A DNA stretch of 64,000 bases, taken from contig NC_015663.1 of assembly GCF_000215745.1 (NCBI RefSeq), forward strand, positions 1,922,001-1,986,000, given 5' to 3'. The notes under the pieces are model-generated. The model did not search any database. It worked only from the letters and a program-made list of their open reading frames with translations, and had not been told where the DNA came from. The position numbers and the translations under genes were made by a program. Origin of the DNA: Klebsiella aerogenes KCTC 2190 (GTDB taxonomy: Bacteria > Pseudomonadota > Gammaproteobacteria > Enterobacterales > Enterobacteriaceae). Shown here one piece after another: positions 14,576 through 43,185 of the stretch (the first letter of the stretch is position 1; every line of letters begins with the position of its first letter).

Positions 14576-14636
14576 GCTGGCTTTTTAGTATAAGGTTTAC
14601 ATCCGGGCCAGTGCGTCCAGCTCATTGGGGAATAAC

Positions 14637-14990
14637 ATGCAGGTAAAATATTTAGCAGGGATTGTCGGCGCAGCATTATTGTTAGCGGGTTGCAGTTCCA
14701 GCAACGAATTAACCGCAGGCGGCCAGAGCGTGCGTTTTGTTGAAGATAAACCGGGAACGGAATGCCAGCTGTTAGGGACGGCTACCGGTACGCAAAGCAA
14801 CTGGCTGTCCGGGCAGAATGGCGATGAAGGCGGCTCGATGCGCGGCGCGGCGAATGCGCTGCGTAACCAGGCGGCGGCCATGGGCGGTAACGTCATTTAT
14901 GGCGTGAGCAGCCCGACGCAAAATCTGCTGTCGAGCTTTGTCCCGACCGATAGCCAGATGAACGGCCAGGTTTATAAGTGCCCGAACTGA
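14637..14990 (+). CDS. yjeI: DUF4156 lipoprotein YjeI
   Basis: A predicted lipoprotein of 117 residues. A signal peptide ends in the lipobox LLAGC, so the mature N-terminus is a lipidated Cys followed by SSSNE. The start at 14637 gives MQVKYLAGIVGAALL, matching E. coli YjeI (MHVKYLAG...); a TTG four codons upstream is less likely. GGGGA precedes it. DUF4156 has no known function. It lies between groL and the accessory block and ends in a large shared hairpin. Confidence 0.93.
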   Translation: MQVKYLAGIVGAALLLAGCSSSNELTAGGQSVRFVEDKPGTECQLLGTATGTQSNWLSGQNGDEGGSMRGAANALRNQAAAMGGNVIYGVSSPTQNLLSSFVPTDSQMNGQVYKCPN

Positions 14991-14993
14991 TGC

Positions 14994-15029
14994 GTTAAGC
15001 ACTCTCTGCCTGCGCAGAGAGTGCTTAAC
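14994..15029. terminator. Bidirectional terminator between yjeI and yjeJ
   Basis: A perfect 16-bp stem (14994-15009 with 15014-15029) with loop CTGC, ending 3 bp before the yjeJ stop codon. It separates convergent units and marks the left boundary of the accessory block. Confidence 0.85.
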
Positions 15030-15032
15030 AAT

Positions 15033-15896
15033 TTATGCCTCAAGCGCTGCTTTGGTAGCCACGTAGAATTCACGCAGCGACAGCATACATTCATCTCTGG
15101 TTAGCATTTGTCCCGGGGCGGATGGAATTACCTTACTGAAGATTTGATACGGCGTATGCTGGCTGTGGACCTGTTTTAGCTTCTGGCTCTTTTCAAGCAG
15201 ACGCAGCACGATACTCTTTTCAAAATCTGACTGATGCGCGGCGCTGGTTTTAATCACCGCACCGGAGAGTACTTTTTTACCCTCCTCCTGCTCGTAGCTG
15301 TATAACACGGCCAGATGGTGGCTAAACAAATTCAGCTTCCACTCTTCCTGAGGATATTGCTGGTACTCGATATTGGGTTGGCTGGTTAAATCGACGGTAT
15401 ACAACAGCACGAAATCCAACGCTAGCGCCAGATACTCGTTTAATTTCGTATCCGCAACCATTTTGAGCGATTGATTGATGCCCATAATCAGCGCTTCCAC
15501 CTGGCGGTCATCAATTCGTAACGTTGTGATTTGCTCGTTTTGCAGCATCAGGATCAGCGTTGACTCATTTACCCCCGGTTTCAACGTGATCGACATGATC
15601 CGCAGCTCCGGATTCGGGTTTTGTACCTCTGCCATATCGACTGCTGGGGTATTGGCGATGAGCTCATTATTGTAGGCAATAAGTTCCTCTTTCAGCGTAT
15701 CGTCGCTTTGCTGCAAGCGCTGTAAGAAAACAGACATTCGAGTTGTCAGGACCATGAGCAAGTCAGCCAGCGCCGGCGCCTGTAAATAGAATGTCCGACA
15801 CAGGCCATTCTGGTTTTGTACTTTCAGCAGCAGTGCCATGAAATGGTCTTCATAGGTAATTCCGGCGGTGTTAAAACCAATAAACGTTCCTTGCAT
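15033..15896 (-). CDS. yjeJ: YjeJ-family protein, last gene of the microcin-export operon
   Basis: A soluble-looking protein of 287 residues with no signal peptide or membrane span. I call it YjeJ because it lies beside yjeI, as yjeJ does in K-12, and has nearly the same length (289 in K-12). This rests on position and size, as I recall the E. coli sequence only in part. The start at 15896 (MQGTFIGFNTAGITYEDHF) is set by AAGGAG, which overlaps the stop codon of the exporter gene (15907-15909). The two genes are therefore translationally coupled. A longer frame to 16040 would run inside the exporter gene. Function unknown; the coupling points to a role in peptide export, processing or self-protection. 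Confidence 0.75.
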   Translation of the reverse strand: MQGTFIGFNTAGITYEDHFMALLLKVQNQNGLCRTFYLQAPALADLLMVLTTRMSVFLQRLQQSDDTLKEELIAYNNELIANTPAVDMAEVQNPNPELRIMSITLKPGVNESTLILMLQNEQITTLRIDDRQVEALIMGINQSLKMVADTKLNEYLALALDFVLLYTVDLTSQPNIEYQQYPQEEWKLNLFSHHLAVLYSYEQEEGKKVLSGAVIKTSAAHQSDFEKSIVLRLLEKSQKLKQVHSQHTPYQIFSKVIPSAPGQMLTRDECMLSLREFYVATKAALEA

Positions 15897-15906
15897 GTTC
15901 TTCTCC

Positions 15907-18030
15907 TTACGCTGGCATTGGTATTTTTGATTGCGACAAATCAATAACCCGATCGGCAGAGGCGATGGTTGACGGGCGGTGGGCAACGATGACGCGGGTA
16001 ATACTGAGCCCTGAAATCGATTGGTTGATAACAGACTCATTTCTTAAATCAAGATGGCTGGTGGCCTCATCCATAAACAGAATGCTCGGTTTACGGTAAA
16101 GCGCTCGGGCAATCAAAATACGTTGCTTTTGGCCCCCGGAAATCCCCAGGCCCAACTCACCAACGATGGTTTCATAGCCCATCGGCATTTTCATAATTTC
16201 GTCGTGAATGTTGCAGCGTTTGGCGCATTCGACGACAAAATCCAGATCGGCGTTGTCTTCAAAGCCGCTGATATTATCAATAAGCGAACCGGAAAAGAGC
16301 CTGTCCTCCTGCAATACGCAGGCGGTTCCCTGGCGATAGTTATTTAAACCTATTTTCTGGATATCGAGATTATCGGCAAACACATCGCCGCTGGTGGGGG
16401 AGAGCAGCCCGCACATCACTTTCAATAGCGTGGTCTTACCGACGCCGGACGGGCCGACCAGCGCGACGGATTCGCCGGGCTCAACGGTGATGTTCAGGTT
16501 TGAGAAAATCGGCTGCGAAAAGGGATCGTATTGATAGCTGAGGTTTCTGACTTCAAGCCTGGCGCCGGCATCTTTCGAAAAGACGTCCCGTGATGGCAAC
16601 TCTTGCTCGGGTTCGCTGAAGACGATTTCAGAAAGACGTTCGTTATGCAGCGAGAGCATGCGCAGCTGCATGGTAAGATCAACCAGGCTGGATGCGCGCT
16701 GGGAGAACTGGCCCCGGTAGGCGTTAAAAGCCATAAACATACCGAGGGTCATTTCATTATCAATAACCATAATGGCGCCCAGCCACAGTACCGCAACCTG
16801 ATCGATGGCGGTAATAAAGGTATTGATACCGCTAAACATCATGTCGAAACGGGTCTGTTTGATCCCCGCATTACAGGCGTCGATGTTAATATTCAGCCAG
16901 TGCTGAGAGCGGCGTTCTTTCAGGTTCAGCGCTTTGATGGTCGAAATACCGTATAGCGACTCCATAAAGTGTGAACTGGAGCGCGCGCCTTTGATTACCT
17001 GTTCTTCAGCAACGCGGCGATAGAAGCGATAAGTTCCCAGACGCATAAGGGCGTAACATAAGGTAAAGCCAACGACGACCCATGTTAGCCAACCGCCGTA
17101 CAGGGTGAGCATAATCAGCAGGCCGATCGTCATGATCGAGTCGATAATGCCGCTGACGATGCTATTAGTGAACGTGGAGCGAATGGTATCCAGCGAAGAG
17201 AAACGGGACTGAATATCCCCCAGATGACGTTTTTCGAAAAATGCCAGCGGCAGGCTGGCCAAATGATCGAATAGAGTGGTTTTCCACTGAATATTGGTTA
17301 GCGTGTTGAGCGTCAGTGAAGTCCATGCGCGCAGCATACTGATAAAGGTGCGGAAGAGGGTAAAGAAGACCAGACCAATACAGATAACCGAGAGCAGGCT
17401 TTGATCGTGGGCCATGATCACGTGGTCAGTGACCAACTGCGTGCCTATTGGCAACAGTAGTCCAATCGCTTCAACGACGACGGAAAAGGCGAAAATTTTC
17501 AGCAGCGCTGATTTTAAGCCAACAATATTACGCATCAGATCTAACAAACGTAGGCGAGATTTGGCTTTTTCCTGCTGGAAGTTCTGATCGGGCCATAACT
17601 CTAACGCGATGCCGGTAAAGTTGTTCGACATTTCCTGAATGCCGATAATGCGTTTACCCAGCGCCGGGTCGTGAACCATAAAGCTAGATTTGCGTACTTT
17701 GGTGAGCACGACGTAGTGGTTCATTCCCCAGTGGATAACGCAGGGCAGCTTTAATTGTCTGATTTCATCAAGATCGAGCGACAGCGCGCGGCTTTTTAAG
17801 CCAGCATGTTCTGCCGTTTTGCTCAATGACATCAACGTTACCCCCTGGGAGGGGCTGCCAAAGCGTTGACGGAAATTGAACAGATCAATATCGAGACCAT
17901 AATGGCCGCAAACCATTGCCAGACAGGCAATGCCACACTCGGCGGCTTCCGATTGCAGTATTACCGGCGTCTTTCTCAATATCGAAAAATTAACTTTCGC
18001 CGTAATTTTTTCAAACAGTTCATTAGTCAT
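15907..18030 (-). CDS. C39-peptidase ABC exporter (CvaB type) for a double-glycine peptide
   Basis: A 707-residue bifunctional protease/transporter. The N-terminal C39 domain has the oxyanion Gln26, Cys32 (LQSEAAECGIACLAM), His105 (HWGMNHYVVL) and Asp121 (VHDPA), so it should cut leaders after Gly-Gly. A six-helix membrane domain covers about 170-450. The nucleotide-binding domain has Walker A G526-PSGVGKT, signature 628-LGISGGQ, Walker B 651-LFMDEA and His684. It matches CvaB of the colicin V system. The ATG overlaps the 3' end of the adaptor gene by 8 bp. It should work with the HlyD-type adaptor and a TolC encoded elsewhere. The likely substrate is the peptide at 19413-19778. Confidence 0.93.
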   Translation of the reverse strand: MTNELFEKITAKVNFSILRKTPVILQSEAAECGIACLAMVCGHYGLDIDLFNFRQRFGSPSQGVTLMSLSKTAEHAGLKSRALSLDLDEIRQLKLPCVIHWGMNHYVVLTKVRKSSFMVHDPALGKRIIGIQEMSNNFTGIALELWPDQNFQQEKAKSRLRLLDLMRNIVGLKSALLKIFAFSVVVEAIGLLLPIGTQLVTDHVIMAHDQSLLSVICIGLVFFTLFRTFISMLRAWTSLTLNTLTNIQWKTTLFDHLASLPLAFFEKRHLGDIQSRFSSLDTIRSTFTNSIVSGIIDSIMTIGLLIMLTLYGGWLTWVVVGFTLCYALMRLGTYRFYRRVAEEQVIKGARSSSHFMESLYGISTIKALNLKERRSQHWLNINIDACNAGIKQTRFDMMFSGINTFITAIDQVAVLWLGAIMVIDNEMTLGMFMAFNAYRGQFSQRASSLVDLTMQLRMLSLHNERLSEIVFSEPEQELPSRDVFSKDAGARLEVRNLSYQYDPFSQPIFSNLNITVEPGESVALVGPSGVGKTTLLKVMCGLLSPTSGDVFADNLDIQKIGLNNYRQGTACVLQEDRLFSGSLIDNISGFEDNADLDFVVECAKRCNIHDEIMKMPMGYETIVGELGLGISGGQKQRILIARALYRKPSILFMDEATSHLDLRNESVINQSISGLSITRVIVAHRPSTIASADRVIDLSQSKIPMPA

Positions 18031-19311
18031 GAATCGGGCCGCTCACGCTTTGAGTAATCTTATAAACTGGAGTAAACATCCACATGTAGAGAGGGCGTTC
18101 TTCAAGGAAGACAACAGCCTGTGCTTTAAGCCCATTGGAAAGGCTTAGCTTTTTCCCGTCATATTCGAACTGTTTATCTTTAATTTTGACAATCGCTTTA
18201 TACAGCGCCAGTTCTTGTTGCTGATTGGTACCGTTACTGACGTTGGTGTATTCAGACATTTCTTGCCGTGACGCCGGCATTGATGATATGGATATAATTT
18301 TTCCTGGGAATTGACCAAATTTATCCGATGGGAAGGCATCATAGCGAATATTGATGGTATCTCCCGTTTTTAAATACGGAATGGTATTGTTGGGTAGCCA
18401 CAGAATGAGATAATACTCAACGTTTCCGGTCGGTTTTATCTGGGCCAGGCTACTTCCATTATCAACGGTTTGCCCTTGGGTAGCCGACAGTGACTCAATC
18501 CTGCCATCGCTGGTCGATTTGATAATAATATTACCGTTAGCATTAGATTCCACTAACTGATTTTTATAATCATTGGCCTGGTTGTATTGACTGGAAATTT
18601 GGTTGTCAAAATCAGCAGCTTTAGTGATTATATCGCTATTAAGTTGTGTAATTTGCGATTCGAGTTGCATTTTTTGGCTAACTAAAGACTGGTAGGCACT
18701 CTGCTGCTGAAAGTATAAAGAGTGCTGATAGTTATACTGATCTTTTGTTATCAGGCCGTTGCTAAGGTATTTATCGTAGCTGGAAAGGTTATCATGCATT
18801 TTCTTCAGGCCTACCTGGGTGTTGACCAGCATACGGTTGGTCTCCTTCAGGGAGGCAGTGGTAGTTTTTAACTGCGCATTCAGCGCATTTAACGTCTGGT
18901 TTTTATTATCTTCCAGTTTTTTAATAATATCTTCAGAGTTGGCGATTTTTTCATTGATAACTTCTATCTGTGCCGCGCTAACATTGCCACTGGTGGTGCT
19001 GCGGGAAACATCAATCTCGTATAGCGGTTGGTTTTTTTTACGACGTCACCAATTTTTACGAATTGCTTGACGATAAACCCCTGCTGTGGCGCAAAGACGT
19101 TAATTGAGTGAGGCAGGGTAATGACTTCGCCTTTAACATCGACACGCTGGGTAAACTTGCAAAATATCAATGCGCAGATAAGCGCAATGAGAAATAATGC
19201 CGACAATAAGGCGATTAACCAGGCGGGTAAGCCAGCGAGCAACAAGGCTTTCCCTTTCCAGTGATGCCTTTTGTATTCGATCGCTTCCTTGCGATAGAGA
19301 TTTTTATTCAT
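18023..19311 (-). CDS. HlyD/CvaA-type membrane-fusion protein, split by a -1 frameshift
   Basis: The periplasmic adaptor of a type I exporter. The first reading frame (19311 down) gives an N-terminal anchor (WLIALLSALFLIALICALIF) and the first barrel-sandwich half, then goes out of frame at an A8 run (19039-19032, minus strand) and stops at 18964. The -1 frame continues as NQPLYEIDVSRS and runs to 18023 through a long coiled coil, the second half-barrel (IIIKSTSDGRIESLSATQGQ) and the C-terminus. The joined protein would have about 429 residues, near CvaA's 413. The run reads GT-A-AAA-AAA-ACC, a zero-frame slippery heptamer, so a slip restores the protein exactly. Alternatives are an indel in a long homopolymer, a sequencing error, or a phase-variable off state. 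Confidence 0.82.
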
Positions 19312-19350
19312 ATTGATAAGTTATATTTACTTTGGCTTGGATTGGATATA

Positions 19351-19376
19351 AAACAAAGGCCTAAAGGCCTTTGTTT
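19351..19376 (-). terminator. Attenuating hairpin between the peptide gene and the export genes
   Basis: An 11-bp perfect stem (AAACAAAGGCC with GGCCTTTGTTT) and loop TAAA, followed on the minus strand by TATATCC. It would let the short peptide mRNA outnumber the export mRNA. Confidence 0.65.
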
Positions 19377-19412
19377 ATTGTATGGAACTTTTTCCAACGC
19401 GCGAAATTATTA

Positions 19413-19778
19413 TCAAGATCCCGGTGCAAAGGTACCATCAAGGGCACTATCTATAAATTCCTGGAAAATAGCCATTGACTTGTCCCAACCGAATGCGACG
19501 GCTCCAGCAGCTCCGGTAATAGCACCAAGAACAAAGCCAACAACAGCCCCTACAGCATTACCAAGTAGGCCAAGTCCCAAAATACCACCATTATGACCGC
19601 CTTGAACACCACCAATCCACGTGCCGACGGCTGACACAATAATGGCACCTAATGTTCCAATAGCAAGAGCCTCTACCGCATTGCTAGCTAGTGAAGTGAT
19701 AGTGGAGGTAACTGATGAGAAATCCCAAGTGTAACCACCGGAGATCTCTTCCATTTCAAATACAGTTAATTCCTTCAT
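19413..19778 (-). CDS. Double-glycine-leader peptide, class II microcin-like
   Basis: A 121-residue precursor. The leader MKELTVFEMEEISGG (15 residues) fits the M-(R/K)-E-L-T-x-x-E-x-x-x-(I/V)-S-G-G pattern cut by C39 peptidases, close to the colicin V leader MRTLTLNELDSVSGG. The predicted mature part has 106 residues. It is Gly/Ala rich and strongly hydrophobic, with two membrane-like stretches (ALAIGTLGAIIVSAVGTWIG; ILGLGLLGNAVGAVVGFVLG). It has no Cys, hence no disulfide, and no Ser-rich tail of the kind that carries siderophore in microcins E492 or H47. AAGGA precedes the ATG, and a TATAAT lies about 40 bp upstream. Heads the operon with adaptor, exporter and YjeJ. No adjacent immunity gene is seen. 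A bacteriocin is the most likely role; a signalling or surface peptide is possible. Confidence 0.8.
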   Translation of the reverse strand: MKELTVFEMEEISGGYTWDFSSVTSTITSLASNAVEALAIGTLGAIIVSAVGTWIGGVQGGHNGGILGLGLLGNAVGAVVGFVLGAITGAAGAVAFGWDKSMAIFQEFIDSALDGTFAPGS

Positions 19779-19817
19779 ATTTATTCCTTTAAATTAATAT
19801 TATTACTAGTTGGCCTA

Positions 19818-19823
19818 ATTATA
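19818..19823 (-). promoter_or_regulatory. -10 element of the microcin-like operon
   Basis: A consensus TATAAT on the minus strand, about 40 bp before the peptide start, in an AT-rich 88-bp gap bounded upstream by the fimbrial-operon hairpin. The matching -35 (CTCATT at 17 bp) is poor, which suggests an activator is needed. Confidence 0.5.
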
Positions 19824-19866
19824 GGACGGAAGAAAATGTAAATGAGGTTTGTAGTTTTAACAACTC

Positions 19867-19901
19867 AACAGACATGAATTCATGTAGAATTCATGTCTGT
19901 T
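19867..19901 (-). terminator. Hairpin ending the fimbrial operon
   Basis: A 13-bp perfect stem (AACAGACATGAAT, 19867-19879, with 19889-19901) just after the adhesin stop. The T tract is weak. It separates the fimbrial unit from the peptide-export unit. Confidence 0.6.
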
Positions 19902-19909
19902 TGAGGATT

Positions 19910-20926
19910 TTATTGTTCCTGAATAACTACTTCTAACATTGCTTTAACTCTACCATTTGTAATGTCGTCAACACTATTGCTTTTGCGATAGTAATCAGCG
20001 GTGAGATTGATCACCTGCGATGTTGCGGCACTATTAAAACTGTAGCTATCCATATCATAAAAGACTAACGGGGTGCCAGTTTGTTTGAAAATGATACCAA
20101 CATTTTTGGCGCCAGAATCGTCGGTTATCATATTATCAATGATACCATCGCCAGATGTGCTCGCGGTGCCTATCGGATTAAACCAGTACATTAAAGTATT
20201 CCCGATGGAACCTGCAGGGCAGGTAATGGTTAATAAGAAATTCTTTTGCTCTGGCGTGACGCCGCCGCGGGAGACCGACATTAGCGTGCTTTTTTTAATC
20301 CGGCCGAGCGTTATTTGTGAACTGGATGGTGATATGTCACATGAGGTTGCCTGATATTTGGTGTTTTTTAGCTTGATATTGGTTGTATATAATAGTTTGT
20401 CATTACTTCCAGGGTTGGTGGTAGGATTGCCGACAGAGAAACTTATTGATGGGTTTGAGTCCGAACCTGAAGTATCAATGACCTGCTTGGTTTTGATAAA
20501 CCACACGGTAATGAATTTATAGTAATTATCTGACGTATTTTCAAATGGTACTAGTACTGAGCCCGCGACAGCAGGCACTAATGCGCCATTTTTGCTTTCC
20601 AGAAGATCGGATATCTGGAATCCAATACCGTCAATTCCGGTTTCATATACTGGCTTTCCCTGTATTCCTGTAACGCCAGCTACTTCTGGTGTACTGATGG
20701 TAGTTATATACTGATCGTTAGTTTTTTGGCTACATGAGAAGTTTTTATAGTTACCAGTGCCGTATTTAGCCGAATATAATATGCTTCCCACTGGAATTGA
20801 GTCGTCTGTCGGTATTTTTGCTCTAATAGTAAATGCTTGCCGCTGGATGCTGCCTGAGTAACTACATTTTGCAGTCGCCTCACCGCAGATAACTAAAAGC
20901 ATTAATAGAATAAACATTCTCTTCAT
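19910..20926 (-). CDS. Fimbrial tip adhesin (FimH-like two-domain)
   Basis: An exported protein of 338 residues, last in a chaperone-usher operon. The signal peptide is MKRMFILLMLLVICGEATA. The mature N-terminal half (about 20-190) should be the receptor-binding lectin domain. The C-terminal half is a pilin domain with the Cys pair (SCDISPSS...LTITCPAG) and a closing beta strand (GRVKAMLEVVIQ) for donor-strand exchange. Size and last-gene position match FimH-type adhesins. The ATG at 20926 is preferred to the TTG at 20929; AGGA lies upstream. The lectin half shows no motif that predicts its receptor. Confidence 0.82.
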   Translation of the reverse strand: MKRMFILLMLLVICGEATAKCSYSGSIQRQAFTIRAKIPTDDSIPVGSILYSAKYGTGNYKNFSCSQKTNDQYITTISTPEVAGVTGIQGKPVYETGIDGIGFQISDLLESKNGALVPAVAGSVLVPFENTSDNYYKFITVWFIKTKQVIDTSGSDSNPSISFSVGNPTTNPGSNDKLLYTTNIKLKNTKYQATSCDISPSSSQITLGRIKKSTLMSVSRGGVTPEQKNFLLTITCPAGSIGNTLMYWFNPIGTASTSGDGIIDNMITDDSGAKNVGIIFKQTGTPLVFYDMDSYSFNSAATSQVINLTADYYRKSNSVDDITNGRVKAMLEVVIQEQ

Positions 20927-20949
20927 CAATATTCGTCCTTAAATAATGG

Positions 20950-23496
20950 CTAGCGACACACCGCTTCGATCTGGTTTAAGCCAGCGGTTTTGCCTTCCCG
21001 CGGAGGTAATGTGAAGGGGGCTTTACATTGCTGGGAACTACTTTTTCCCCACTGTACGTTGAGCGTCCCGGTTTGCTGCAGACCGGACATATAGACCATC
21101 CCGGCGTCGCTGACGATACTCGCCTGGCTTTTCGCATCGTCGGCCAGTAAGACCATAGCGCCGTAAGGAACGTCTTGACCGCTAGCCGTTTTCAGGTGAA
21201 TAAAGGCGCGTTGTCCGATCTTGCCGTCGTAGTTGGCCCGTACAATGGCGCCGCGGGTTGGCACCACGGTTTGCGTCGTTTCCGGCAGTTCCATATCATC
21301 ACCAAGCGTGGTGCTATCAAGGGTAATATCAGTGCGGCGATAAGGGGTGACGTAAGGCACGATGGCATAGCCGCGGTAGTCGGTTGAGATAGTGCTATCG
21401 GTAGTCAGCTTGACGTTATCTAAGCCTGGAGCCTTAACCAGCACGGCGGCATCGGTGATGTCCTGTCCTAACGTAATACCGTCGGCGTGGGCGATAATGC
21501 TACCGCTGGCGCCATAATCCACGCGCTGACTGTCACGATCGTAGCTATAACCGGCATTGATGCTGCCCTGGGAACCGTTATAGGTAGCGCGCATGTCGCC
21601 GCTGTAATACTCACGGTTGCTATATCCCTGCTGGATACTCCAGTCCAGGCTATCGTTTTCCAGCCCCACGCCGCCGATAGCGACGGATTGATCCGTCGAG
21701 CCGGGGTTACTATTGGTGAGCTGATAGCTGGTGTAGGTGCCAGGGAGCCAGTTGCTGATTGGCAGCGTGACGGTCAACGTAATGCGCTGATCGTCCTGCG
21801 CGTCGCTGTCGGAGCTATTGTTGCTCCAGGTATAGCGGCTATAGCTATAGCCCAGATAGAAGTTCACATTTCTAAAGCCGCCGTTATAGCCAACGCTGAT
21901 AGATTTGTTGGTGCGTTTATCATCCCAATAATCTTCAACCAGCCCGCTAATAGATACGCTGCCCAGGCCTTTACCCAGACTTTGGTTGAGGGTCAGGTTG
22001 GTGCGATTGCGTAATGAACGGGTGGTATAGCGACCGTCATTAGCATAACTATCCAGCACCTCGGATAAGGTGTTAAATCCCTTAGTAGAGTATCGATAGC
22101 CAGCGATGGTGATGTTGGTGCCGGTATCAAGGATATTTTTACCATAACGGATTCGCCAGGACTGTCCTGAAGTCTTTTCCCGATCCTGCATTTTTGACCA
22201 GGCTTGGGTGACGTCAGCTGACGCGGCTCCGAAATCGCCGAGGTTATAGCCGAGACCGGATGACAACGCCTGATAATGCGAGGCCATCTGCATCCCGCCG
22301 TAGGCGGTCAGGCTACTGGACACCCCGTAGCTGGCCGTTGCCTGGGTAAATGGCGTTTCATGTACGCCGTCATCATATGGGCGATATTTACCTGAAGTGA
22401 TTTCATACTGCAGCTGGCCTTCACGCACCATGACCGGTAGCGTGGCGAACGGTACGATGAATTCTTGCTTTGAGCCATCTGATTCTTCTACGGTTACATA
22501 CAGGTCGCCGCTACCGCCGCTGGGATACATATCGGTGATTTCAAAGGCGCCGGGGGCAACGTAGGTCTGATAGACCTGATAGCCGTTTTGCTTAACGATC
22601 ACCCTGGCGTTGGTTTTTGCAATCCCTCGGATAATTGGCGCATAGCCGCGCAGGCTCTCTGGCAGCATGGAGGTATCCGTCGCGAGTTGGACCCCAGTAA
22701 ACGGAACGCTGTCAAAGATCCCGGAAAGCGAGGAGCTTTCGCCCATCACCAAATTACTGTTAATGGGGCGTATACTACGCTGCATGTACAGGTACGCCGA
22801 CTCCCAGTCGCCTGCGTCGCCTTTTGTTTTATTCCAGGTGCTCAGATTCCTGATGCGCCAGGGGCCGAGGTTTAAGCCGGACTGGAGGTTAAGACTATAG
22901 TATTCGTCTTCGGATTCGAAATCATCCGAGCCGCTGAACTGGTAATTCACCAGTAGCGCGTTAATTCCGTCGTCAAATTGATCCTCAGGGATAAATCCTT
23001 GCACGACGGTGGATAATGCCGCCTGAGGGATGGAGATATTTAAACGCTGCGCGTTAAAATCAAAATCCGCTTTGGTATCTGGAATAACCGTCAGGTTAGT
23101 ACAACCATTAGCATCTTCTTGCAATTTAGTGAATGCTTTAACTCTAACGCCATATTGCGATAAGTCCTTGAGACTGAAGCAGGGCGCCAGTTTGATCTCA
23201 TCGCTAGCGGTGCTGGCCCGGCTATTATCAATCACAAATTTTATAGTTTTGGTATCCAGGTATTGGCCATTAAAGACGATGTCCACCCGGTAGTTACCGG
23301 GAGCCTGCGCGTTCCTGGCTTCAAACACAGATAAGTCTGGGGCGTTTGAAGGATCGCTACCATTCAATGAGTTTATGAATGAGGGATCGAAAAAATCACG
23401 TGCTTGCGCTTTGTTATCCAAACCAGAAAAAAATGCGGCCAGTAATGCAATTCCTGGCGCTGATAGTTTGAATAGGTCTTTATTTTTATTTTGCAT
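20950..23496 (-). CDS. Fimbrial outer-membrane usher
   Basis: A FimD/PapC-type usher of 848 residues that accepts chaperone-subunit complexes and threads the growing pilus through the outer membrane. After the signal peptide, the N-terminal domain begins RDFFDPSFINSL. The usher signature region includes GESSSLSGIFDSVPFTGVQL with SMLPESLRGYAPIIRGIA, before the plug. A long 24-strand barrel region and C-terminal domains follow (VVPTRGAIVRANYDGKIGQRAF). The start at 23496 has AGGGA upstream; a GTG two codons earlier overlaps that site. It lies between the chaperone and adhesin genes with short gaps. Confidence 0.95.
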   Translation of the reverse strand: MQNKNKDLFKLSAPGIALLAAFFSGLDNKAQARDFFDPSFINSLNGSDPSNAPDLSVFEARNAQAPGNYRVDIVFNGQYLDTKTIKFVIDNSRASTASDEIKLAPCFSLKDLSQYGVRVKAFTKLQEDANGCTNLTVIPDTKADFDFNAQRLNISIPQAALSTVVQGFIPEDQFDDGINALLVNYQFSGSDDFESEDEYYSLNLQSGLNLGPWRIRNLSTWNKTKGDAGDWESAYLYMQRSIRPINSNLVMGESSSLSGIFDSVPFTGVQLATDTSMLPESLRGYAPIIRGIAKTNARVIVKQNGYQVYQTYVAPGAFEITDMYPSGGSGDLYVTVEESDGSKQEFIVPFATLPVMVREGQLQYEITSGKYRPYDDGVHETPFTQATASYGVSSSLTAYGGMQMASHYQALSSGLGYNLGDFGAASADVTQAWSKMQDREKTSGQSWRIRYGKNILDTGTNITIAGYRYSTKGFNTLSEVLDSYANDGRYTTRSLRNRTNLTLNQSLGKGLGSVSISGLVEDYWDDKRTNKSISVGYNGGFRNVNFYLGYSYSRYTWSNNSSDSDAQDDQRITLTVTLPISNWLPGTYTSYQLTNSNPGSTDQSVAIGGVGLENDSLDWSIQQGYSNREYYSGDMRATYNGSQGSINAGYSYDRDSQRVDYGASGSIIAHADGITLGQDITDAAVLVKAPGLDNVKLTTDSTISTDYRGYAIVPYVTPYRRTDITLDSTTLGDDMELPETTQTVVPTRGAIVRANYDGKIGQRAFIHLKTASGQDVPYGAMVLLADDAKSQASIVSDAGMVYMSGLQQTGTLNVQWGKSSSQQCKAPFTLPPREGKTAGLNQIEAVCR

Positions 23497-23529
23497 AGAC
23501 ACATCCCTATAAGGTTAAACAACTTCCAA

Positions 23530-24216
23530 TTACAACGATGATGAATAGAGCGTTCCGGCTCCGCCATAATCGTTGACTATTTTCCATGTAATACCTGATG
23601 CGGTTACATTTTGTTTTAAAGTGACTTCCTTGGTCTCCATCGGCGGGACAGAACTCACTTCATTTTTAATTTCGGTATTACCGATTTTTATTGTATTGAA
23701 GTAATAGAAAAATGGCGTAGGGTTCTTAATTGATAATTTATTGCCTGATTTTCGCCATTCAAGTTTTGCCGCTTCGGTATTCGGGGTCATATCAAACAGC
23801 GATTTTGGCCGAAATACCAGACGCATACGATGGCGAACCGCCAGCTGGATGGTATTATTTTTAGCATTCGTATCATCCGCGGGGGGAATAGCCATAACGT
23901 TGAAATAAAATATCGATTCGCGATCGGTTGGCGCCGCGACATTACCTGTAGAAAACAGGCGAACGGTATTTTGTTGTTTTGCTTCGAGACGAAACAGTGG
24001 CGGCGTGGCCATGAATGACGGCGTTTGTCCTTTTGGGGTCTCAATCCAGGACTTGATTAAATAGGGGATACCGTCTTTGTTCTCTATTTGTGCCGTTACT
24101 TCACGGGAGCCTTCTTTGTAAAGATAGCGGGTAGACTCAATGACGATACCGGCATGCGCAATGCCGCTTATCAGTAAAAAACAGGGAAAGACAAGTTTAA
24201 ATAAGGTCCTGAACAT
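23530..24216 (-). CDS. Periplasmic fimbrial chaperone
   Basis: A PapD/FimC-like chaperone of 228 residues. The signal peptide ends near GIAHA. The first Ig domain carries the subunit-anchoring Arg (ESTRYLY) and the G1-strand region with a basic residue pair (AVRHRMRLVFRP). The conserved FYFNVMAIPP block is present. The second Ig domain ends GITWKIVNDYGGAGTLYSSSL. It caps pilus subunits by donor-strand complementation and delivers them to the usher encoded next. It follows the pilin gene after a strong hairpin. Confidence 0.94.
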   Translation of the reverse strand: MFRTLFKLVFPCFLLISGIAHAGIVIESTRYLYKEGSREVTAQIENKDGIPYLIKSWIETPKGQTPSFMATPPLFRLEAKQQNTVRLFSTGNVAAPTDRESIFYFNVMAIPPADDTNAKNNTIQLAVRHRMRLVFRPKSLFDMTPNTEAAKLEWRKSGNKLSIKNPTPFFYYFNTIKIGNTEIKNEVSSVPPMETKEVTLKQNVTASGITWKIVNDYGGAGTLYSSSL

Positions 24217-24232
24217 AGCATTTCTCTAAACG

Positions 24233-24262
24233 AAAAAAGGGCTCGCCAGACAGCGAGCCCTT
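24233..24262 (-). terminator. Attenuator after the major pilin gene
   Basis: A 10-bp stem (AAGGGCTCGC with GCGAGCCCTT, 24237-24246 and 24253-24262) followed on the minus strand by TTTTTTCG. It sits between pilin and chaperone, and should keep the pilin mRNA in excess over assembly and tip genes. Confidence 0.8.
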
Positions 24263-24272
24263 CGGGGTAAAA

Positions 24273-24842
24273 TTAAGCGCCAGTGGTATAGTCGATAGTA
24301 AAGGTTGCTACGCCTTTAACCGGACCTTCGGTTACGGTGGTAGCTTCGTTTACTTTCACATAACCCGCGTAGTAGTTCAGAGAAGTGACGGAACCGTCAG
24401 TGTAGGTTTCAGCCATGGTTTGGGAACCATCGAAGGCTACACGAGAACCATCGCTGGCTTTCGCGATGCCGATACCGATGCCGGCAGCGCCGTCGTCAGC
24501 GGTGTTGTCCAGAATTGTTGCGTTGGCGCTGGTGGTACCAGTAACTGCAACAGTCAGGCCGGTTGCTGGTTTTTCGCTGCCTTTGGCGCAATCAGAAACG
24601 TCAAAACCAAACTTCTGGCTTTTGAACAGGACGTTAGCAGTCTGTGCATTCGCTTCGCTGGTGGTAACAGAAGTCAGACGAACGATGCCGTTGTTCAGAG
24701 TACCAGTCGGGGTGACTACGCAAGAAGAAGAGGAGTCGTTGACTTCGCCAAGAACGGTCACTTCAGCAGTGTTAGCGGCCATTGCCTGTGCGCTCAGAAC
24801 TGCAGATGCAGCAACCATTACAGCTACGATTGTTTTTTTCAT
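24273..24842 (-). CDS. Major fimbrial subunit (FimA-type pilin)
   Basis: A 189-residue pilin. The signal peptide MKKTIVAVMVAASAVLSAQA is cut near AMA-ANTAEV. The mature part has the N-terminal donor strand (EVTVLGEV), the disulfide Cys pair (SSCVVTP and VSDCAKGS) and a C-terminal beta-zipper strand (GVATFTIDYTTGA) with the penultimate aromatic pattern of pilins. First gene of the operon, followed by an attenuator. The codon bias is that of an abundant protein. Which named Klebsiella fimbria this is cannot be settled by eye. Confidence 0.93.
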   Translation of the reverse strand: MKKTIVAVMVAASAVLSAQAMAANTAEVTVLGEVNDSSSSCVVTPTGTLNNGIVRLTSVTTSEANAQTANVLFKSQKFGFDVSDCAKGSEKPATGLTVAVTGTTSANATILDNTADDGAAGIGIGIAKASDGSRVAFDGSQTMAETYTDGSVTSLNYYAGYVKVNEATTVTEGPVKGVATFTIDYTTGA

Positions 24843-25343
24843 TTATTTGTCCATGTATAAATACGTAATCCCTGAAATAGATGTTGCCTCAGTTTTAATT
24901 AACGGATCACTGAATAACCGTTAATTGACGCTGAGTCTTAACACTATCCCGTTCTTTACTCCTTTGGTGTCCTTTGTAATATGCAGGTACTTGCCCGCAA
25001 TTAGCGTAAGACGGGAGCAGTGAGGAATTTAATTGGCAAGCAGGTAAAATGCATGTGAATTTTAATTGAATAACCTATTTTAATGATGGGAGGAACGTTT
25101 CACATTTTAATCTCCTTGAATAGTAGTTGCGTTAACGTGATGAATGTTCGACAATATACTTGGCTTCCTTTTCGTTAAAAGGTCACGTTGGCCTTGGCGC
25201 CGTTCGAAAATGGAGAGCCAATGATTGAGATGTGAAACTATCTAACGGCAGGGCTGTTTAGGGCTATTTGCTCAAGTTCAAAAATGGAATCTCATTAACT
25301 TCATGTTTAATTCACGTGACTAATGAATAAAAGGAAAAGCATT
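24843..25343. promoter_or_regulatory. Divergent 500-bp control region between pilin and regulator genes
   Basis: AT-rich, with no ORF I would support. It contains an 11-bp near-perfect inverted repeat (TTAATTAACGG at 24895-24905 and CCGTTAATTGA at 24918-24928), about 55-85 bp upstream of the pilin start, in operator position. A TATAC-rich stretch before the pilin gene could be its -10. No pair of longer inverted repeats suggesting a fimS-type invertible switch was found. Confidence 0.45.
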
Positions 25344-25895
25344 ATGGCATTTAGCGAGTTCATTATTAATAATGAAGTCATATTCGATGTGAATATGAGT
25401 GAGTTACGACCTGTTAATGGAAATGGTGAAAGCATTAACTTGAATGGTCCAACTGCACGTTGTCTACAATTGTTAATTGAAAGTAATGGACGAATCATTT
25501 CTCGAGAAGAATTTCTGGAATCTGTCTGGAAAACAAGGGGGGTTGTCGTCGCGCAAAATACTTTTTATCAAAACATATCATTGCTCAGAAAATCACTGCT
25601 GAAGGCTGGATTATCACAGGATATCATTGTTACTGTCAGGCAGCGTGGGTTTATTCTTGCAACTGGTTCCTTGATCGTACCGGTTGTCAAAGCTGAGGAA
25701 GAAGTGTCTACCTGCCAGATAACCCCCTTAATAAAAAAAGTTGTAACAATAGAAGATAGTGTGCCAGAGATAAATAACAATGAGCGCCAAAATTATATTG
25801 AAAACAAAAGAGATAGAGCATTTAAATTACCCATGTGGTTTATTCTTATGTTCGTAATTATGGCTGTAACTAATATCCTTTCGTTATTTTATTAG
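25344..25895 (+). CDS. Membrane-anchored winged-helix regulator (ToxR/CadC-like)
   Basis: A 183-residue protein. Residues 1 to about 105 form an OmpR/ToxR-type winged helix: LNGPTARCLQLLIESNGRII, then REEFLESVWKTRG, then NTFYQNISLLRKSLLKAG and a final RQRGFILATG hairpin. A polar linker leads to one C-terminal membrane segment (MWFILMFVIMAVTNILSLFY) with almost nothing beyond it. It is therefore a DNA-binding protein tethered to the inner membrane without a periplasmic sensor domain. AGGA at 25332-25335 favours the ATG at 25344; an in-frame ATG at 25323 lacks a site. Divergent from the fimbrial operon, so it probably controls it; control of the microcin-like operon is only a guess. Confidence 0.82.
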   Translation: MAFSEFIINNEVIFDVNMSELRPVNGNGESINLNGPTARCLQLLIESNGRIISREEFLESVWKTRGVVVAQNTFYQNISLLRKSLLKAGLSQDIIVTVRQRGFILATGSLIVPVVKAEEEVSTCQITPLIKKVVTIEDSVPEINNNERQNYIENKRDRAFKLPMWFILMFVIMAVTNILSLFY

Positions 25896-42815: not shown

Positions 42816-42891
<76 letters not shown>

Positions 42892-42962
42892 AAATTTGAA
42901 AGCAGCACCATACCAAAACATAGTTTTCAGGTTACCGACAGGTAGATTGAAAACCAATGTAA

Positions 42963-43038
<76 letters not shown>

Positions 43039-43109
43039 AAATTTGAAAGACACACCATACCAAAGCATAGTTTTCAGGTTACCAGCAGGTAGATTGAAAA
43101 CCGATGTAA

Positions 43110-43185
<76 letters not shown>

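What the first reader, a model, noticed from the sequence alone, without database searches (positions are those of the whole stretch)
15033..19778. Four-gene microcin-like export operon that ends in a YjeJ-family protein
Seen: a 15-residue Gly-Gly leader peptide gene, an HlyD-type adaptor, a C39 ABC exporter with Cys32/His105/Asp121 intact, and yjeJ lie head to tail on one strand, with overlapping or coupled ends between the last three. Known: CvaA/CvaB/ColV form the equivalent export set. Inference: YjeJ is a working part of this system (substrate delivery, maturation or self-protection). As far as I know it has no assigned role. The peptide matches no microcin I can recall.
Basis: partly seen in the sequence, partly recalled or inferred. 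Interest (0 to 1): 0.78.

Follow-up and report, generated by a model that had tools for sequence, protein, structure and literature searches.

The report
Fimbria-linked peptide exporter with YjeJ
A Klebsiella-like chromosome carries a conserved gene block that joins adhesive fibres to a machine for secreting small glycine-rich peptides and ends in the uncharacterised protein YjeJ; this gives the lone yjeJ gene of E. coli a testable origin, although the copy seen here has a split adaptor gene.

Summary
The operon is real, with one flaw: its HlyD adaptor is split between two frames at an 8-base homopolymer, but open (427-430 aa) in 20 of 20 related cassettes checked. The YjeJ-exporter link is real but confined. 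With the C39 gene as bait, yjeJ lies directly behind it in 19 of 19 loci at >=68.6% C39 identity and 0 of 16 others; 40 further C39 loci have none. E. coli-type yjeJ stands alone between yjeI and epmB and matches 5375 of 5426 E. coli genomes. YjeJ diverges as fast as the peptide and tracks it beyond what exporter distance explains, though its raw distance follows C39 more closely. Best reading: a fimbria-linked, microcin-like cassette whose YjeJ is a peptide-matched partner, most likely for self-protection. Against: sister cassettes with similar peptides lack YjeJ. Export from this copy is probably off.

The parts
15033..15896 (-). yjeJ-like gene, 287 aa
   Evidence: PF15922 148 bits; directly 3' of C39 in 19 of 19 bait-found loci of this C39 clade
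15907..18030 (-). C39 peptidase-containing ABC exporter, 707 aa
   Evidence: PF03412/PF00664/PF00005; C32, H105, D121 present
18023..18832 (-). HlyD-type adaptor, C-terminal piece in its own frame
   Evidence: PF13437 39.9 bits; frame change against intact relatives
18964..19311 (-). HlyD-type adaptor, N-terminal piece in another frame
   Evidence: aligns to residues 1-93 of intact HlyD; frames change at a T8 run 19032-19039
19413..19778 (-). GG-leader glycine-rich peptide, 121 aa (106 after the leader)
   Evidence: homologues; AF2 model a helical hairpin, pLDDT 69.9
19910..20929 (-). fimbrial adhesin-like gene
   Evidence: weak MrkD-like receptor domain, 18.2 bits, under its cut-off; same place in relatives
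20950..23502 (-). outer-membrane usher
   Evidence: PF00577 608 bits
23530..24216 (-). periplasmic pilus chaperone
   Evidence: PF00345, PF02753
24273..24842 (-). fimbrial subunit
   Evidence: PF00419 46.6 bits
25323..25895 (+). winged-helix regulator, divergent
   Evidence: PF00486 52.6 bits; recurs in relatives
14625..14990 (+). yjeI (DUF4156), left flank of the block
   Evidence: PF13698
26051..27082 (-). epmB, right flank of the block
   Evidence: tblastn synteny; annotated in the same order in L164

Best explanation
The finding is the exporter half of a conserved block: regulator, fimbrial subunit, chaperone, usher, adhesin, one to three GG peptides, adaptor, C39 exporter, YjeJ. In an intact copy, fibres and peptides would be made together; the C39 domain would cut the leader, and exporter, adaptor and a TolC-type channel would release the glycine-rich hairpin peptide at the surface of an adhering cell, most likely as a microcin-like weapon. 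YjeJ is a cytosolic partner matched to the peptide and most likely protects the producer. The lone yjeJ of E. coli and of Serratia plasmids would be retained copies of such protection genes. Shown: gene order, recurrence, co-divergence, block exchange, split adaptor here. Inferred: co-expression, secretion, toxicity, protection.
For: YjeJ directly follows C39 in 19 of 19 bait-found loci of the clade. An usher lies within 5.3 kb of C39 in 21 of 27, against about 2.7% reckoned for a random place from 11 ushers in the own genome. The block occurs in the groEL-epmB interval and in stretches without it (L092, L094, L095, L096, L110). Mean pairwise distance: YjeJ 0.655, peptide core 0.585, usher 0.431, HlyD 0.285, C39 0.215 (17 loci). 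With cubic control for C39 and HlyD, YjeJ tracks the peptide (r 0.43-0.46, p 0.0017; 0.0007-0.0013 with usher added); HlyD-peptide, C39-peptide and usher-peptide do not (p 0.12-0.60). K. pneumoniae strain 176 has swapped the whole interval between near-identical flanks. No coding-strand ORF >=40 aa with a membrane segment between adhesin and adaptor in 17 cassettes, so YjeJ is the only unassigned gene. Orphan yjeJ in E. coli and on six Serratia plasmids.
Against: Cassettes with similar peptides and fimbriae but no YjeJ exist (L098, L099, L102, L106), and they have no small membrane immunity ORF either, so protection may not be needed. YjeJ's raw distance follows C39 (r 0.91) and HlyD (0.86) far more than the peptide (0.42), and stays tied to C39 when peptide and usher are controlled (r 0.92), which suits an exporter partner or plain block inheritance. 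The peptide signal fades to r 0.35, p 0.06 in 11 less redundant loci, and YjeJ also tracks the usher weakly. L087 keeps adaptor, C39 and YjeJ with no peptide or fimbriae found in the stretch. One YjeJ serves up to three peptides. It has no sign of a membrane segment (gravy near 0), unlike known microcin immunity proteins (PMC9746304 passages). Three of 13 E. coli-type places read have yjeJ in two pieces (L069, L070, L078). No activity is shown.
Confidence: 0.4

Rival explanations
1. YjeJ is an accessory of this exporter clade: a cytosolic chaperone or docking factor that presents the GG peptide to the C39 exporter.
For: Presence of YjeJ follows the C39 clade (19 of 19 against 0 of 16), not the peptide type (similar peptides in L098 and L099); raw distance follows C39, r 0.91; L087 keeps YjeJ with the exporter where no peptide was found nearby.
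Against: Solitary yjeJ with no exporter beside it: 13 places read, E. coli K-12, six Serratia plasmids. Closely related exporters work, if they work, without it.
Confidence: 0.28
2. The peptides are not bacteriocins but fibre-related or signalling peptides; fimbriae and exporter form one surface system, and YjeJ serves it in another way.
For: Fimbria link in the window's clade and in a distant C39 group where two GG peptides directly precede the pilin gene (L139, L152); no ordinary immunity ORF in 17 cassettes.
Against: L104 has GG peptides and exporter without fimbriae in the stretch; several near-copies of the peptide side by side and whole-block exchange look like competition loci; fimbria-exporter linkage may only reflect shared regulation.
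Confidence: 0.3
3. YjeJ is a nucleic-acid-binding regulator of the block.
Confidence: 0.1
4. YjeJ is a positional hitchhiker: it sits at the edge of an often exchanged interval and has no part in the system.
For: Lone and cassette yjeJ share the yjeI-epmB interval; Kluyvera L091 and L109 hold both; block exchange by flanks.
Against: The C39-YjeJ pair also lies in stretches without groEL, yjeI or epmB (L092, L094, L095, L096, L110).
Confidence: 0.13

Closest known systems
Colicin V / microcin V export set (CvaA, CvaB, CvaC, Cvi)
   Same: GG-leader precursor, HlyD-type adaptor, C39 exporter with the same three catalytic residues (residue numbers also in PMC9746304 passages)
   Different: Fimbrial operon upstream, no small membrane immunity ORF found, YjeJ at the end; window exporter only distantly related to CvaB at DNA level (blastn pieces about 70%, 15% of the query)
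Class II microcins of Serratia marcescens (PMC13101503; abstract and passages seen)
   Same: GG peptides exported by C39 exporters in Enterobacterales; cassette peptides also occur in S. marcescens and S. ureilytica (L099, L098)
   Different: Those are described with adjacent immunity proteins; the word fimbria does not occur in the main text; whether the cassette peptides are among the 93 listed could not be checked (supplements closed)
Chaperone-usher fimbriae of Klebsiella pneumoniae (PMC4353729; passages seen)
   Same: Subunit, chaperone, usher, adhesin order
   Different: The passages found mention no colicin, ABC transporter or HlyD neighbours
E. coli YjeJ (b4145)
   Same: Same Pfam family, same place between yjeI and epmB
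   Different: Solitary; separate clade (support 100 and 99); E. coli copies in the plasmid set are about 30-31% identical to the window's protein
PUR-alpha repeats I-II
   Different: 6-9% identity, no Foldseek hit at E <= 0.001; the rest of YjeJ is unmatched

Membership tests
Class II microcin system | GG/GA-leader precursor peptide | tested here: met
   window 19413-19778; 38-row alignment A2 with conserved leader
Class II microcin system | C39 exporter with Cys, His, Asp | tested here: met
   C32, H105, D121
Class II microcin system | intact membrane fusion (HlyD) protein | tested here: not met
   split in two frames in the window; open in 20 of 20 related cassettes checked
Class II microcin system | adjacent small membrane immunity protein | tested here: not met
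   no coding-strand ORF >=40 aa with a membrane segment between adhesin and adaptor in 17 cassettes; two opposite-strand ORFs with one segment (L093, L094); shorter, overlapping or distant genes not tested
Class II microcin system | TolC-type outer channel | not tested
   not sought in the own genome
Class II microcin system | antibacterial activity of the secreted peptide | not testable with these tools
   needs an experiment
YjeJ family PF15922 | match above the curated cut-off | tested here: met
   148 bits against 27
Chaperone-usher fimbrial operon | usher, chaperone and fimbrial subunit in one gene run | tested here: met
   PF00577, PF00345/PF02753, PF00419
PUR-fold nucleic-acid-binding protein | PUR repeat fold | tested here: inconclusive

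The most novel reading that the evidence does not exclude
Enterobacteria hold a class of fimbria-coupled secretion blocks in which adhesive fibres and C39-exported glycine-rich peptides form one unit, present in at least two distant C39 lineages, and YjeJ is the founding member of a new kind of soluble, peptide-matched protection factor that E. coli kept as a near-core orphan.
Probability: 0.2. Interest if true: 0.85.

Novelty: new variant of a known kind. Interest (0 to 1): 0.6.

Why it matters
It gives YjeJ, which matches 5375 of 5426 E. coli genomes and for which the listing I saw (20 of 30 papers) showed no assigned role, a concrete hypothesis that can be tested with laboratory strains. 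It points to a physical link between fimbriae and peptide secretion that would tie adhesion to competition at close range. And it warns that immunity searches limited to proteins of 30-250 aa (PMC9746304 passage) would pass over a 287-aa candidate.

Tried and rejected
Rejected: that YjeJ generally marks C39 exporters (see the counts). Limits: the C39 rows were cut off, and only 20 YjeJ places were read at about +-9 kb, so weak or distant neighbours of the other YjeJ places could be missed. Outside the family: 5 of 345 order genomes match, all of the same family and one of them the own genome. Rejected: that YjeJ stands in one-for-one for a small immunity gene; cassettes without YjeJ have none either. 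Rejected: a plasmid home for the two K. pneumoniae hits in the plasmid set; both stretches hold chromosomal neighbours such as groES and epmB. The better E. coli C39 hit (H1) has neither YjeJ nor fimbrial genes annotated in its stretch. No sequence relative of YjeJ among solved structures at E <= 1, no structural hit at E <= 0.001 in the PDB or viral libraries. Promoter- and terminator-like sites in 14900-25600 are no more frequent than in shuffles (15 against 18.2; 12 against 11.6), so a single transcript is not shown. ORFs of 80 aa between the L090 peptide copies start with TTG and look like duplicated non-coding DNA; not tested further.

Limits of the co-divergence test: 17 of 23 YjeJ-linked loci were used. 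Left out: L063 (near-copy of L096), L067 (exporter remnant), L083, L087, L088, L101 (a gene missing, cut or at a contig end). Loci share ancestry, so p values are indicative. Linear control gave r 0.59, p 0.0005 for YjeJ-peptide and r 0.43, p 0.0035 for YjeJ-usher.
Full report
What is there. The window lies in a 5.28 Mb single-contig enterobacterial genome. The nearest proteins to its YjeJ that bear a species name are from Klebsiella aerogenes (98% and 97%), so that species is likely. On the minus strand, between groEL-yjeI and epmB-efp, lie a fimbrial subunit, chaperone, usher and adhesin-like gene, a 121-aa GG-leader peptide, a HlyD-type adaptor in two frames, a C39 exporter and a yjeJ-like gene; a winged-helix regulator is divergent from the fimbrial operon. 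C32, H105 and D121 of the exporter are present. Gaps are 131 bases (adhesin-peptide), 101 (peptide-adaptor), an 8-base overlap (adaptor-C39) and 10 (C39-yjeJ).

The adaptor. Aligned to the intact 428-aa protein of K. pneumoniae ATCC 13883 (L082), the window's gene changes frame at residues 92/93, at a T8 run 19032-19039. It is open over 427-430 aa in 20 of 20 other cassettes checked; L083 was not among them, because its first part is missing and the DNA there looks like an insertion that I did not identify. In the protein search the four nearest hits are 412-429 aa and 99-100% identical over the query, one in a cluster of 268 members; a 269-aa form, 96% identical, has 39 members. Intact copies exist widely; whether the window's break is real or a sequencing error cannot be told here. 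Export from this copy is probably off.

Is YjeJ tied to C39 exporters? In 295 family genomes PF15922 matches 47 (45 over the cut-off) and PF03412 matches 132. Six genomes have a listed C39 hit within 2 kb of YjeJ; a seventh has an exporter remnant (L067). Thirteen E. coli-type places read at about +-9 kb show yjeI-yjeJ-epmB and no C39; in three of them (L069, L070, L078) yjeJ is in two pieces. With the window's C39 as bait in named species genomes, 35 loci came back. YjeJ follows C39 in 19 of 19 loci at >=68.6% identity (Klebsiella, Leclercia, Silvania, Enterobacter, Kluyvera, Entomohabitans, Budvicia, Kosakonia, Raoultella, Cedecea) and in 0 of 16 others, to which the next is 67.7%. In 40 further C39 places from near the top of the list, all under 60% identical, none has YjeJ. 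Adding the window and three loci found through YjeJ (L062, L063, L067) makes 23 of 23, but those four are not independent evidence.

Fimbriae. Among the bait-found loci an usher lies within 5.3 kb of C39 in 21 of 27 at >=63.9% identity (a cut placed afterwards, at the gap down to 58.5%). Of the six without, two sit at contig ends (L088, L101), L087 has no peptide or fimbriae in its stretch, and L100, L103 and L104 lack ushers; L104 still has GG peptides. Below 60% it is 0 of 8 in that scan and 4 of 40 in the second sample. The own genome has 11 usher matches in 5.28 Mb, from which I reckon about 2.7% for a random place; the loci share descent, so this is no test. The four exceptions belong to a distant C39 group (40-42%). 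L139 has LuxR-type regulator, TolC-type channel, adaptor, C39, two GG peptides and fimbrial operon in one run; L152 has the same parts with the peptides and fimbrial genes first. In both the two peptides directly precede the pilin gene. In L155 and L158 I saw exporter and fimbrial genes and did not establish peptides. So the link exists in two lineages; YjeJ belongs to part of one.

Unit of exchange. K. pneumoniae strain 176 (L166; labelled a plasmid, but a 5.37 Mb record with groES and epmB) is 98.9% (1424 bases) and 99.5% (4481 bases) identical to the type strain in the two flanks, while the interval of about 12.9 kb between them aligns only in pieces at 65-77%, and has the layout and a peptide ending (GSHGIY) like Leclercia L084. 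Another K. pneumoniae (L164) holds the usual block, annotated in full. Blocks in stretches without groEL, yjeI and epmB also exist (L092, L094, L095, L096, L110).

Co-divergence. In 17 loci the mean pairwise distance is 0.655 for YjeJ, 0.585 for the peptide core, 0.431 usher, 0.285 HlyD, 0.215 C39. Raw YjeJ distance follows C39 (r 0.91) and HlyD (0.86) more than the peptide (0.42) or usher (0.49), and remains tied to C39 with peptide and usher controlled (r 0.92). That suits block inheritance or an exporter partner. After cubic control for C39 and HlyD, YjeJ tracks the peptide (r 0.43-0.46, p 0.0017); HlyD-peptide (p 0.33-0.37), C39-peptide (p 0.12-0.16) and usher-peptide (p 0.46-0.60) do not. 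In 13 loci r is 0.40 (p 0.015), in 11 less redundant loci 0.35 (p 0.06). YjeJ-usher is weaker (r 0.18-0.34, p 0.03-0.10) but not nil. This is what a peptide-matched partner would show; shared ancestry limits the weight of the p values.

No ordinary immunity gene. In 17 cassettes, four of them without YjeJ, the space between adhesin and adaptor holds no coding-strand ORF of 40 aa or more with a membrane segment; L093 and L094 have one such ORF each on the other strand. Published class II microcins have adjacent, small, inner-membrane immunity proteins (PMC9746304 passages; PMC13101503 passages). Either YjeJ does that work where present, or these peptides need none. Cassettes without YjeJ but with similar peptides (L098, L099, L102, L106) speak for the second, or for an accessory role.

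The orphans. E. coli K-12 has yjeI-yjeJ-epmB; a match to that gene is in 5375 of 5426 E. coli genomes, 5346 with a place over at least 80% of its length. Kluyvera L091 and L109 have both the cassette YjeJ next to yjeI and an E. coli-type YjeJ next to epmB. In trees the E. coli-type clade is single (support 100 and 99); midpoint rooting puts it inside the cassette-linked sequences, which fits an escape from a cassette, but the root is not secure. Six Serratia plasmids carry a third clade (support 100; its place beside the E. coli type has only 56), with no exporter annotated in the stretches read.

Literature. Searches: yjeJ (30 papers, 20 listed); class II microcin + C39 + Enterobacteriaceae; Klebsiella + fimbrial + bacteriocin + C39 + chaperone-usher; Klebsiella fimbrial clusters (12 of 57 listed); fimbria + microcin + colicin V secretion + Klebsiella + usher (12 of 46 listed); double-glycine + fimbrial operon + ABC transporter + bacteriocin + Enterobacter (12 of 34 listed). 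In these listings I saw no paper describing a fimbria-C39-YjeJ block. Seen: PMC9746304 (abstract, sections 7 and 9, passages: microcin hits in nearly all K. pneumoniae, K. quasipneumoniae, K. variicola and K. aerogenes assemblies); PMC13101503 (abstract, passages); PMC11494933, PMC13174018, PMC4353729 and PMC10679819 (passages). In PMC10679819 yjeJ serves as a linkage marker. Supplements could not be read, so the peptides may already be listed in these surveys.

Verdict. The ordinary part is a microcin-like exporter, some of whose peptides NCBI records already call 'colicin V'. The new part is the fimbria-linked block with its own YjeJ lineage, and the origin that this suggests for the E. coli orphan.

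Noticed in passing
L139, L152 (also L155, L158): A distant C39 group (about 40% identical) sits with a fimbrial operon; in L139 and L152 two GG peptides directly precede the pilin gene and a TolC-type channel and LuxR-type regulator are included.
   Followed up: partly
L167-L172: YjeJ family genes on six Serratia plasmids (18-57 kb), mostly beside a recombinase or transposase gene, with no exporter annotated nearby; five have a conserved small upstream gene.
   Followed up: partly
L166 (CP125156.1): A 5.37 Mb K. pneumoniae record labelled a plasmid carries a swapped fimbria-peptide-YjeJ interval between near-identical flanks.
   Followed up: yes
window 19869-19899: A 13-base perfect inverted repeat with a 5-base loop lies between the adhesin and peptide genes; it is not in the terminator-like list.
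   Followed up: no
L141 (own genome C1:4347600-4367500): A second C39 exporter with an adaptor, 52% identical, no YjeJ or usher hit in the stretch.
   Followed up: no
L069, L070, L078: E. coli-type yjeJ in two pieces; in L070 groEL and yjeH are in pieces too, which may be poor sequence.
   Followed up: no
window 42816-43185: Three tRNA-Gly (gcc) genes in tandem, 147 bases apart.
   Followed up: no
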